Shown piece after piece: positions 4,457 through 42,326 of a stretch of 64,000 nucleotides of DNA (positions are counted from its first letter, which is position 1; the number at the start of each line of letters is the position of its first letter). Both the position numbers and the translations under genes were made by a program. The notes under the pieces were generated by a model. The model did no database searches. It saw nothing but the letters and a program-made list of their open reading frames with translations, and was not told the DNA's origin. The stretch spans positions 143,667 to 207,666 of the forward strand of contig JAJVIF010000004.1 of the NCBI GenBank assembly GCA_022072165.1, given 5' to 3'. Source of the stretch: a bacterium (GTDB taxonomy: Bacteria; JAJVIF01).

Positions 4457-5857
4457 CTAGTCCTGCACGAGCAGAATGAGCCGATCGCCCCAGACATCGA
4501 GTACGGAGCGGACCAGCGGTCGCAGCAGCGCGTGGTGGGGAAAGGGAGCCAACTGCGGGACTTGCTGGAATGTCCAGGGCGCATTGACACCGGTGGGATC
4601 GCCAGTCATGGCTAAGCCGAGGCCTCGGGAGGGGTCTGGCACTTCGTCCGGCCCTCCGGGGGAGTAGGCCAGGATAAGACGGTCCTGATGCGTCACGAGT
4701 CCAGCAGGCACTCCGGTTTGAGATGGGCCCGTGCCGATCGGCTGCAGACGCCAGGCATTCGCGCGGACTGCGGCTTCGCTCGCCCCGTAGTAACAATCGA
4801 GCAGGGCGGAACCATCGGTCTGGATGTACGTGAATCCACCATCCGGAAGCGAGACCGCGTGGGCGGCAAAAGCATCGTCGTCCCAGGCGGCGATGGTTCC
4901 AAACGTGACGCGCTTTGCCGATCCGGTCCCGAAGCCATCGATGAGATCGGGCAGGCGGAGGACATCCCAATCGTCGTTGGAGTCCGGCAAGGGGGTATTC
5001 GCAATGGCGACGTAGTTGGTGTAGAAGGAGGCCAGGGTGATCTGATTCTCGCGCAGGATCGAGGTGCCCATCAACACGGGCTTATCTCCGGCGAAAGTGA
5101 GGACAGCCGGACATATCCCGTCGCCAGAGCCAGTCACATCGGCAGGAGTGAGAGTCTCGCTGGAACTCCAGTCATCTAATGAACCAGGCAACGGACTGGC
5201 TGAGCAAGCAAGAAACTCCCTGTCAAATCGTGCATGGCCGCGCAGATAAACGCGCCCCATATGTTCACGCAGTTCTGCTGTTCGAAGTTTACCGAGAGAT
5301 GGAAAGCTTCTTCCCGACAGCGAATCGCTGTAACTTATCCAGCCTGTGGATTCCGAAGCATCACGAGCTCGCACAAAAAATGTAGCTGCGTTGGACTCAT
5401 CCCGTGGCGTGTAGTACACGATGATTGCTGTCGAAGTAACCAGCAGTGCGGGTTCAAGCATCGAGCCTGTCACGCCGATCTCCATTTGTTCCCAAATAGG
5501 AGTCACCGGGGCAGTGGCGATCTCAACATCCAAATTCATACTCCCGGATGTCCCCAGAGTGTTTTCCGCGCGGACCGTTACTTGCCCTGTTCCGGCAGCG
5601 CCGAGAAGCACTCTGGGAGTATTCGAGGTTTCGGAGCTAGCGCCAATTTGCGAAAAGTCCCAAACCCAGGTGGTTGGATTGTTTGTCGCCTTGGCTCGGA
5701 ATCGCACCCAACCTCCTGCACTTCCTACCACGCCGGTTGGCTTGACTTCCGTGATCATCGGTACGTCTGGCGGAGGAGTGGTCTGACCACTTCCGCTGCA
5801 GGCGGACAGGCCACAGAGAACAAGCGCGAATCCCAGGACTGTGAGCTTCCAATTCAT
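4457..5857 (-). CDS. Lipoprotein with N-terminal PKD-like domain
   Basis: A 466-residue exported lipoprotein. Its signal peptide is MNWKLTVLGFALVLCGLSAC with lipobox LSAC. Residues ~32-112 form a PKD-like domain (VKPTGVVGSAGG, PTTWVWDF, V-R-A-E-N) very close to domains in the lipoprotein at 51919-52542. The rest looks like repeated short beta units (for example LDVWGDRLILLVQD at the end), perhaps a propeller, but I recognise no family. Its ATG overlaps the stop of the upstream gene (ATGA), so it is the last gene of a three-gene operon. GC is clearly lower here (some 60-base lines are about 47-55 %), suggesting transfer or relaxed selection. Confidence 0.75.
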   Translation of the reverse strand: MNWKLTVLGFALVLCGLSACSGSGQTTPPPDVPMITEVKPTGVVGSAGGWVRFRAKATNNPTTWVWDFSQIGASSETSNTPRVLLGAAGTGQVTVRAENTLGTSGSMNLDVEIATAPVTPIWEQMEIGVTGSMLEPALLVTSTAIIVYYTPRDESNAATFFVRARDASESTGWISYSDSLSGRSFPSLGKLRTAELREHMGRVYLRGHARFDREFLACSASPLPGSLDDWSSSETLTPADVTGSGDGICPAVLTFAGDKPVLMGTSILRENQITLASFYTNYVAIANTPLPDSNDDWDVLRLPDLIDGFGTGSAKRVTFGTIAAWDDDAFAAHAVSLPDGGFTYIQTDGSALLDCYYGASEAAVRANAWRLQPIGTGPSQTGVPAGLVTHQDRLILAYSPGGPDEVPDPSRGLGLAMTGDPTGVNAPWTFQQVPQLAPFPHHALLRPLVRSVLDVWGDRLILLVQD

Positions 5858-40571: not shown

Positions 40572-41105
40572 TCAGGGTCGGGTAGTGAGGATAACGGGAA
40601 CATCCAGACTCCACATGTCCCGGTCATCGCTCACCAGGATGAGCTACTGGGTGCGGCAGATCATCGCCAGGCAGACGTCGTTAAAGTCTGCCTGATTCAG
40701 ACTCGTGGCTGCAGACAAGGCGACCAGTTCCGATCGACCAAGCGAGAGTGTCATGGCACTGGTGAGTGCGCAGACTTGCGTCAGTGCATGGCTGGCATCT
40801 TGCCTTGCATCCGCAGAGTCGGAATGCGCTCGCCACCGCTTGAAGGATTGTGTGGCCCAACCAGAATTGTTGAAGCTGCGGCGCAGGATAACGTTCGCAA
40901 TCTCTGACATGACCAGCAAGTCAGCTAACAAGGTGCTGCCAGCGACTTGGCAGCGGCTAAGGAAGACCGAAGAATCTGTCGTGGCTCTTGCGGGTGAGGA
41001 CCGAAAAGAGGGAGCCACAATCGGGAGCCAGATGTTCGTGTCGAAGAGGAATCGATGTTCGCTGGTCGAGATAAACGTGGCGGCGTCGTGGACCACAGGG
41101 GGCAC
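40572..41105 (-). pseudogene. PIN-domain protein with in-frame TAG
   Basis: A PIN-type nuclease-fold protein, read as 153 residues before TAG at 40644-40646. PIN acidic residues are visible: Asp22 in FLFDTNIWL, Glu68 in VMSEIANVIL, and Asp140/143 in LNQADFNDVCLAM. Straight after the TAG the same frame continues LILVSDDRDMWSLDVPVIL and stops at 40572-40574. SDDRD is the expected last PIN motif, so the TAG cuts a gene that was 176 codons long. TAG ends other genes here, so a recoded genome is unlikely. Nonsense mutation, sequencing error or readthrough are the options. GTG start overlaps the STAS gene stop (TAGTG). Confidence 0.75.
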
Positions 41106-41455
41106 TATGCTGCTTCCTCCTGTGCAGCGCGCCAGGCCGCTTCAGCCGCCTCCGGGTTCCTGAAGTACTCAATGGCGTTCTCGCGAACACGTTCTACCAG
41201 CCCCTGCTGGAAGCTGCTGAGATTCTCCAGCTGTAGCAGGCTGCTGATCAGCTCAGGAGTAAACTCCTCATAGAGTGCGCCAATGGCCCCATTCAGGAAG
41301 GCAGATGTCACGATTTCCAGGCCCGTGAAATCCAGAGTGATCATCTCGCCCTGACGCAGCGCGTCACGGATTTGCTGAGCCAGCTTGTCGCCATCGACAC
41401 GCGAGACTGCGTAAGCCGAGTTGATGAGCGAAGCGATGCGCAGTTGTCGGACCAT
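41105..41455 (-). CDS. STAS-like (DUF4325) protein
   Basis: A 116-residue protein of the STAS-like DUF4325 family (PF14213): AYAVSRVDGDKLAQQIRDAL, then ITLDFTGLEIVTSAFLNGAI, matching the family pattern with its conserved (T/S)SAFLN. STAS-like proteins bind partners in switches that use a serine-kinase-type ATPase, such as the one encoded just upstream. ATG at 41455 gives a family-like N-terminus; a GTG at 41482, three bases after the ATPase stop, is an alternative and would mean coupling. Its TAG overlaps the GTG of the PIN gene. The region has lower GC than its surroundings. Confidence 0.8.
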   Translation of the reverse strand: MVRQLRIASLINSAYAVSRVDGDKLAQQIRDALRQGEMITLDFTGLEIVTSAFLNGAIGALYEEFTPELISSLLQLENLSSFQQGLVERVRENAIEYFRNPEAAEAAWRAAQEEAA

Positions 41456-41484
41456 AGCAAGAGTAATTTTATCAGAAGCCACAA

Positions 41485-42312
41485 TTACGGACGGGGAGTA
41501 GCGGGAAGCGTTCTGAGTTCGAGCACGACCAGGGTGCCCGGAAAGCGATCGGCTATGGAAGTGCAGGAACCCGCGTCCCCATCTTGCATGTAGAGCGCTA
41601 AGCCGGAAAGGATGCACAAGCGCCCTCCATTCTGCCTGACCACTGCTGCAACGTCGGGCAATCCAATGCCCCCGATTTCCGGCAGGGAGCTAAAGCCTCG
41701 CTGTAGCGCCCAGTCGAGGGCCTGGACAGCAGTCAAAGCACGCCGATCTTGCCGGCTTTGCTGAACGGATCCTGGAATGGTCACTCCCAGATCACACACG
41801 GAGAAGCCTACAAGGCGGACATTGGGATAGTGCTGGCCGGAGGCCAGACAACCGGCAGCGGATTGGGCATGGCGGTCCACATTTGAGAAGACTTCGCACA
41901 GGCTGGCCAGGAGGGGCTCCCGGACTTCCTGAGTCAGTGTCGGTAGCTCATTGCGCACGAATCCCTCAAGCAGGTACTTTGCAGCATCGGAGGTCAGCCC
42001 GGCGGTGCTGTCCCAGACCCGGTACTGAATGCTCGTGTGGTACCGGTCCTCAGTAAAACTCTCAGTAAAGCCGATTTGGCTGAGGGCATGGGCGACCTGG
42101 GATGACATCCCCGACAGTTGTCCTTGCGATCCCGCTCCGGCCAGTCTTTTGAGTGCTCCCAGCCCTGCACACAAGTGCGCTGAAATCCAGGTTGTCTGCC
42201 TGGCATCGAGATGAATCACTGCCGGCTGTTCCGCAAGCACGCTGGCGGCGGCGGCGGCGAGCCATCGCAAGCTGGCTTCATCGTCCTTGAATTGCTGCGG
42301 CAGCTGAATCAT
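41485..42312 (-). CDS. STAS/HATPase-type ATP-binding regulator
   Basis: A 275-residue protein. Residues ~30-100 look STAS-like (AVIHLDARQTTWISAHLCAG). Residues ~130-270 are a GHKL ATPase as in anti-sigma and serine kinases: N box LCEVFSNVDRHAQ, G1-like SVCDLGVTIPGSV and G2-like GGIGLPDVAAVVRQNGG. No histidine-kinase phosphoacceptor helix is present, so it should be a partner-switch kinase or an ATP-gated binder. First gene of a three-gene operon with the STAS-like and PIN genes. TACAAT lies 8 bases before the ATG with no Shine-Dalgarno. It diverges from flhA with a 71-base gap. Confidence 0.78.
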   Translation of the reverse strand: MIQLPQQFKDDEASLRWLAAAAASVLAEQPAVIHLDARQTTWISAHLCAGLGALKRLAGAGSQGQLSGMSSQVAHALSQIGFTESFTEDRYHTSIQYRVWDSTAGLTSDAAKYLLEGFVRNELPTLTQEVREPLLASLCEVFSNVDRHAQSAAGCLASGQHYPNVRLVGFSVCDLGVTIPGSVQQSRQDRRALTAVQALDWALQRGFSSLPEIGGIGLPDVAAVVRQNGGRLCILSGLALYMQDGDAGSCTSIADRFPGTLVVLELRTLPATPRP

Positions 42313-42320
42313 GTCCAGGG

Positions 42321-42326
42321 ATTGTA
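42321..42326 (-). promoter_or_regulatory. -10 element of the ATPase-STAS-PIN operon
   Basis: TACAAT on the minus strand, 8 bases before the ATG at 42312, implying a leaderless transcript. No clear -35. Confidence 0.45.

What the first reader, a model, noticed from the sequence alone, without database searches (positions are those of the whole stretch)
40572..42326. ATPase - STAS-like (DUF4325) - PIN operon
Three overlapping or closely spaced genes encode a GHKL ATPase with a STAS-like N-terminus, a DUF4325 STAS-like protein, and a PIN-fold nuclease-like protein. Seen: N box, G1 and G2 motifs, the TSAFLN core and the PIN acidic residues. Known: STAS domains and serine-kinase ATPases work as partner switches; PIN domains are usually RNases. 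Inference: a partner switch controlling an RNase, perhaps a stress or defence module. GC is lower than in the neighbours, which suits horizontal transfer.
Basis: partly seen in the sequence, partly recalled or inferred. Interest (0 to 1): 0.78.

Follow-up and report, generated by a model that had tools for sequence, protein, structure and literature searches.

The report
vapKSC toxin-antitoxin-kinase operon, toxin interrupted
Three bacterial genes here form a recently described anti-phage switch (a kinase, an inhibitor it releases, and an RNA-cutting toxin), but in this genome the toxin gene carries a stop codon, so it is a new and probably damaged copy of a known system.

Summary
On the minus strand lie a STAS-GHKL kinase gene (42312-41485), a DUF4325 STAS-like gene (41482 or 41455 to 41105) and a PIN nuclease gene (41105-40572). 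The same three genes in the same order occur in every related locus whose contig continues far enough (78 of 78), across about 20 bacterial phyla, in two archaeal records and in phage-type records. This arrangement was published in June 2026 as vapKSC (Chambers et al., EMBO J, PMC13373217). PDB 9Z7O is the Escherichia VapS-VapC complex. The window's STAS-like protein matches VapS at E = 1.1e-9 by single sequence. The family PIN profile matches VapC at 9e-16. The published phospho-acceptor S48 aligns with S60 here, and that site is Ser or Thr in 89 of 89 family members. In the window, an in-frame TAG removes the last 23 residues of VapC, including an invariant acidic residue. TAG is an ordinary stop in this genome. 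All catalytic residues before and after it are kept. The lesion is therefore recent, a sequencing error, or an inactivated toxin. The copy is very divergent.

The parts
41485..42312 (-). vapK-like gene (P0003, 275 aa): N-terminal STAS-like domain plus GHKL kinase domain, no HTH
   Evidence: ORF; AlphaFold model pLDDT 86.7, best PDB match SpoIIAB 1l0o at 4.3e-4 and 1tid with TM 0.71 on the target; invariant E140 N144 H148 G159 Q160 D174 G176 G215 G217 L218 N228 G230 in 87 rows
41105..41482 (-). vapS-like gene (P0002): DUF4325 STAS-like antitoxin with acceptor Ser60; start may instead be ATG at 41455 (116 aa)
   Evidence: Pfam DUF4325 4.1e-14; phmmer to PDB 9Z7O chain A 'Escherichia VapS' 1.1e-9; S/T at position 60 in 89 of 89 rows; the family's conserved start Met aligns near P0002 M10
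40572..41105 (-). vapC-like PIN nuclease gene, interrupted by one in-frame TAG; read through it gives 177 aa (P0001)
   Evidence: PIN Pfam 5.8e-4; profile of the family to 9Z7O chain C 'Escherichia VapC' 9e-16; D22, N24, E68, N71, D140, D143, D161 all kept; AGGAGG about 10 nt before the GTG start
40644..40646 (-). in-frame TAG at codon 154 of vapC, before the last beta strand and D161
   Evidence: TAG ends 14 of 38 long ORFs in the window, so it is not recoded

Best explanation
This is a divergent vapKSC locus. By homology to the studied Escherichia system, VapS (the DUF4325 protein) binds VapC (the PIN nuclease) and blocks it. A signal, thought to be single-stranded DNA from damage or phage infection, activates VapK. 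VapK phosphorylates the conserved Ser (S60 here, S48 in Escherichia), VapS lets go, and free VapC cuts RNA and stops growth. Shown here: gene content, order, homology, and conservation of the kinase, acceptor and nuclease residues. Shown in the paper for Escherichia: VapC toxicity, VapS antitoxicity, the S48E effect, the 2:2 complex and phage protection. Inferred there and here: ssDNA as the signal for VapK, and RNA as the target. In this genome an in-frame TAG truncates VapC, so the toxin arm is probably inactive as sequenced, while kinase and antitoxin are open.
For: 78 of 78 uncut related loci carry K-S-C in this order. P0002 matches VapS 9Z7O_A at 1.1e-9 and the family profile at 3.9e-25; the PIN profile matches VapC 9Z7O_C at 9e-16. 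Published S48 aligns with S60, and published D28 aligns with D22. Hydroxyl residue in 89 of 89. SpoIIAB-like fold with an added N-terminal STAS-like domain. VapC interrupted, TAG an ordinary stop.
Against: P0003 sits on a very long branch (5.34 changes per column, median 0.31) and lacks several near-invariant residues (for example G178 to T and K219 to P), so its kinase may not work in the standard way. P0001 alone matches 9Z7O_C only at 0.54; the link rests on the profile. The window has Ile at position 43, where most homologues have Phe. Whether that is the proposed ssDNA-stacking Phe (F54 in Escherichia) could not be checked.
Confidence: 0.9

Rival explanations
1. A decaying relic: the toxin has been inactivated by a real nonsense mutation and kinase plus antitoxin are drifting, as toxin loss is tolerated while antitoxin loss is not.
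For: In-frame TAG. Long branch of P0003 and lowest nearest-neighbour identity of P0001. Broken vapC is over-represented across the family: 8 lesions in vapC against 7 in vapK plus vapS, about 2.7-fold per kb, one-sided p = 0.046 after my curation of the flags. A decayed remnant exists on a Leptotrichia plasmid.
Against: vapK and vapS are fully open with all catalytic and acceptor residues. The VapC tail beyond the stop keeps D161, D163 and T174. So the lesion is recent at most. The enrichment is marginal and mixes real lesions with assembly errors.
Confidence: 0.45
2. The stop is a sequencing or assembly error and the locus is an intact, working vapKSC.
For: All conserved VapC residues on both sides of the TAG are kept. 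A good ribosome-binding site precedes vapC. Frameshifted kinase genes in other metagenome bins suggest such errors are common.
Against: The lesion is a clean single nonsense codon in a nearly closed assembly (4 contigs). No reads were available.
Confidence: 0.35
3. A CapKS-type pair that regulates transcription of a neighbouring operon rather than a toxin.
For: VapK and VapS are kin of CapK and CapS (PMC13373217). The operon diverges from the flagellar flhA-flhF operon with only about 70 bases between.
Against: P0003 has no N-terminal HTH and P0002 no winged helix, both of which define CapKS. A PIN gene follows directly. Same-class relatives have flhA without these genes beside it.
Confidence: 0.04
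4. An ordinary VapBC toxin-antitoxin pair beside an unrelated ATPase.
For: PIN toxins are common in VapBC.
Against: No VapB-type antitoxin. The ATPase and DUF4325 genes are present in every uncut homologous locus.
Confidence: 0.01

Closest known systems
vapKSC (Chambers et al. 2026, EMBO J, PMC13373217; Escherichia sp. E4736; VapS-VapC complex PDB 9Z7O)
   Same: Gene order, STAS-GHKL kinase without HTH, single STAS antitoxin with Ser/Thr acceptor and C-terminal helix, PIN toxin with the same catalytic residues.
   Different: Very divergent sequence; vapC carries an in-frame TAG; several near-invariant VapK residues changed; host lies in a sparsely sampled class (only three other genomes of the class were returned).
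CapK-CapS (same paper)
   Same: GHKL kinase with fused STAS domain plus a STAS substrate with a conserved Ser.
   Different: CapK has an HTH and CapS a winged HTH and they repress an immune operon; here both are absent and a PIN gene follows.
SpoIIAB-SpoIIAA and RsbW-RsbV partner switches
   Same: GHKL serine kinase (model best match 1l0o, 1tid) and STAS protein with acceptor Ser.
   Different: No sigma factor in the three-gene unit or the adjacent genes examined; the kinase has its own extra STAS-like domain; the STAS protein guards a nuclease.
VapBC type II toxin-antitoxin
   Same: PIN-domain toxin held by a protein inhibitor.
   Different: Inhibitor is a STAS protein released by phosphorylation instead of a VapB protein.

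Membership tests
vapKSC | Three-gene operon in the order kinase, STAS protein, PIN protein | tested here: met
   same order in 78 of 78 uncut homologous loci
vapKSC | VapK: STAS plus GHKL domains, no N-terminal HTH | tested here: met
   model of P0003 starts with the STAS-like domain, then a GHKL domain matching SpoIIAB; HATPase_c in 33 of 37 homologues
vapKSC | VapS homologous to Escherichia VapS with absolutely conserved Ser/Thr (S48) | tested here: met
   1.1e-9 to 9Z7O_A with S60 aligned to chain residue 66, which is S48 if the 134-residue chain carries an 18-residue tag before the 116-aa protein (length inferred from PMC13373217); S79/T10 of 89 rows
vapKSC | VapS short C-terminal helical region after the STAS domain | tested here: met
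   predicted helices 90-108 and 110-124 in P0002
vapKSC | VapC: PIN protein of this family with conserved catalytic residues including D28 | tested here: met
   D22 aligns with D28 of 9Z7O_C; D22 E68 D140 D143 D161 kept in the read-through protein
vapKSC | Uninterrupted vapC reading frame (needed for function, not for descent) | tested here: not met
   TAG at codon 154. The locus is filed by descent; a working toxin is not claimed.
vapKSC | VapS binds and neutralises VapC; phosphorylation releases it; ssDNA activates VapK; phage protection | not testable with these tools
   experimental features, reported for Escherichia only (PMC13373217), with ssDNA activation of VapK untested there too
CapKS | HTH on the kinase and winged HTH on the STAS protein, immune operon downstream | tested here: not met
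   neither present in the models; the next genes on that strand are the PIN gene and then a large PKD protein
VapBC | Adjacent VapB-type antitoxin | tested here: not met
   partner is DUF4325, no VapB

The most novel reading that the evidence does not exclude
The toxin stop is real and the kinase-antitoxin pair has been kept under selection for another use, for example as an antidote against incoming vapKSC elements on phages or plasmids, or as a damage-responsive regulator of the adjacent genes.
Probability: 0.08. Interest if true: 0.5.

Novelty: new member of a known kind. Interest (0 to 1): 0.3.

Why it matters
The survey shows that vapKSC is widespread (8 of 385 genomes in a diverse sample, about 20 bacterial phyla, two archaeal records, a Streptococcus prophage, a Deinococcus plasmid). 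The literature found here has one study on one member, so independent sequence support for its key steps is useful. The acceptor hydroxyl and the PIN residues are conserved almost without exception, while the toxin gene tends to be the broken one, as expected of a toxin. The window copy itself is of modest interest because its toxin is interrupted.

Tried and rejected
Recoding of TAG: rejected, 14 of 38 long ORFs of the window end in TAG. DrmA (DISARM) membership suggested by PADLOC (1.2e-12): rejected, the match covers only the GHKL stretch of a 1750-position model. GC as proof of transfer: weak. Repeats flanking the operon as insertion scars: none of 14 bases or more. Nucleotide relatives on plasmids: none. 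First genome-contig scan with P0003 alone found nothing; it needed a profile of closer homologues. Searching Escherichia genomes for the VapK sequence, in order to map F54, was not possible. Searching papers for 'VapS' alone gave noise; 'VapC' + 'STAS' + 'antitoxin' found the paper. More distant ATPases (under about 125 bits) were checked and carry no PIN gene; several pair with DUF4325 beside housekeeping genes.

Full report
What is there. On the minus strand three genes follow each other: a 275-aa protein (42312-41485), a 125-aa protein (41482-41105; a start at ATG 41455, giving 116 aa, fits the family better) and a PIN gene that starts with GTG at 41105, overlapping the previous stop by one base and about ten bases after AGGAGG. 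The PIN frame meets TAG at 40646-40644 and then stays open to TGA at 40574-40572. Read through, it gives 177 aa with every conserved PIN residue. The divergent neighbour is flhA, about 70 bases away; the neighbour on the other side is a large PKD protein.

Is it more than chance? A profile of the ATPase found 80 loci in 84,980 genomes and one viral contig. In three of these 81 the contig ends before or within 200 bases after the second gene; in all other 78 a PIN gene of the same family (whole or in pieces) follows, always in the order kinase, DUF4325, PIN. In a broad sample of 385 genomes, 8 carry the unit. More distant ATPases lack the PIN gene although several keep a DUF4325 partner. The triplet is therefore a fixed unit.

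Conservation. Kinase residues E140, N144, H148, G159, Q160, D174, G176, G215, G217, L218, N228 and G230 are invariant in 87 rows. In the DUF4325 protein, position 60 is Ser in 79 and Thr in 10 of 89 rows. In the PIN protein E68, N71, D140, D143 and D161 are invariant in 80 rows and D22 and N24 in 79. The exchange of Ser for Thr and nothing else is what a phosphate acceptor would show (inference).

Structure. The kinase model (pLDDT 86.7) matches SpoIIAB best (1l0o 4.3e-4; 1tid TM 0.71 on the target) and has an extra N-terminal STAS-like domain; by sequence that domain resembles anti-sigma factor antagonists weakly. The DUF4325 model gives only weak matches, several of them to STAS proteins such as RsbV and SpoIIAA.

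What it is. Sequence search of the PDB gave 9Z7O, 'Escherichia VapS' and 'Escherichia VapC'. The paper is Chambers et al., EMBO J 2026 (PMC13373217). It names the operon vapKSC, reports 289 instances across bacteria, 36% near other immune genes, a 2:2 VapS-VapC complex, toxicity of VapC but not D28A, rescue by VapS but not by S48E or a C-terminal deletion, and about 100-fold protection against phage Bas42. ssDNA activation is shown for CapK and only predicted for VapK. S48 aligns with S60 and D28 with D22 of the window. The locus is thus a vapKSC locus by descent.

How this copy differs. P0003 has an end branch of 5.34 changes per column against a median of 0.31; nearest identities are 35, 36 and 29% for the three proteins. 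The TAG removes the last 23 residues with D161. TAG ends 14 of 38 long ORFs in the window, so it is a normal stop. Because vapK and vapS are open and the VapC tail keeps its conserved residues, the stop is recent or an error. Across the family vapC is broken more often than its partners: 8 lesions in vapC against 7 in vapK plus vapS, p = 0.046 one-sided. I curated these flags by hand, removing stops that lie only at gene ends, and bins contain errors, so this is suggestive only.

Spread. The kinase tree mixes phyla: 35 changes of phylum label where 19 is the least possible. The copy in G002, of the same class, lies near Thiotrichaceae copies and not near the window's. The flhA region of the three class relatives has no vapKSC. 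This supports horizontal movement; the long branch leaves the window's own source open.

Verdict. It is a new, divergent member of a system described in 2026, with an interrupted toxin gene.

Noticed in passing
L015 3962-5754 (Streptococcus phage Javan172, MK448860): A complete vapKSC beside the integrase of a temperate phage; the VapC gene (5224-5754) is not annotated in the record.
   Followed up: partly
L007 4575-5773 and L016 3968-5166 (S. agalactiae plasmid/prophage records): A related kinase plus DUF4325 pair without a PIN gene, just after the lysin gene, a usual place for prophage cargo.
   Followed up: partly
L017 3503-4822 (faecal scaffold MT837999): A single protein joining GHKL and a C-terminal STAS domain (VSSSFIDEF), lying between type I restriction hsdR-like and hsdM-like genes.
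   Followed up: no
L062 5967-7016 (G076): One protein with HTH-like, GHKL and DUF4325-like parts, that is kinase and possible substrate in one chain.
   Followed up: no
L122 3977-5831 and L123 2328-4119: vapKSC in records named Methanosarcinaceae and Thermoplasmata, although the paper speaks of bacteria; L123 is a short contig and could be mis-binned.
   Followed up: partly
L006 4243-6595 (Deinococcus gobiensis plasmid P5): Plasmid-borne vapKSC preceded by a helix-turn-helix regulator gene.
   Followed up: no
L009 4480-5387 (Leptotrichia hofstadii plasmid): Fragmented remnant of all three genes.
   Followed up: partly
window 41485-42312: PADLOC model PDLC02567 'DrmA' matches this kinase at 1.2e-12 through the GHKL region only; automatic annotation could wrongly call DISARM.
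   Followed up: partly
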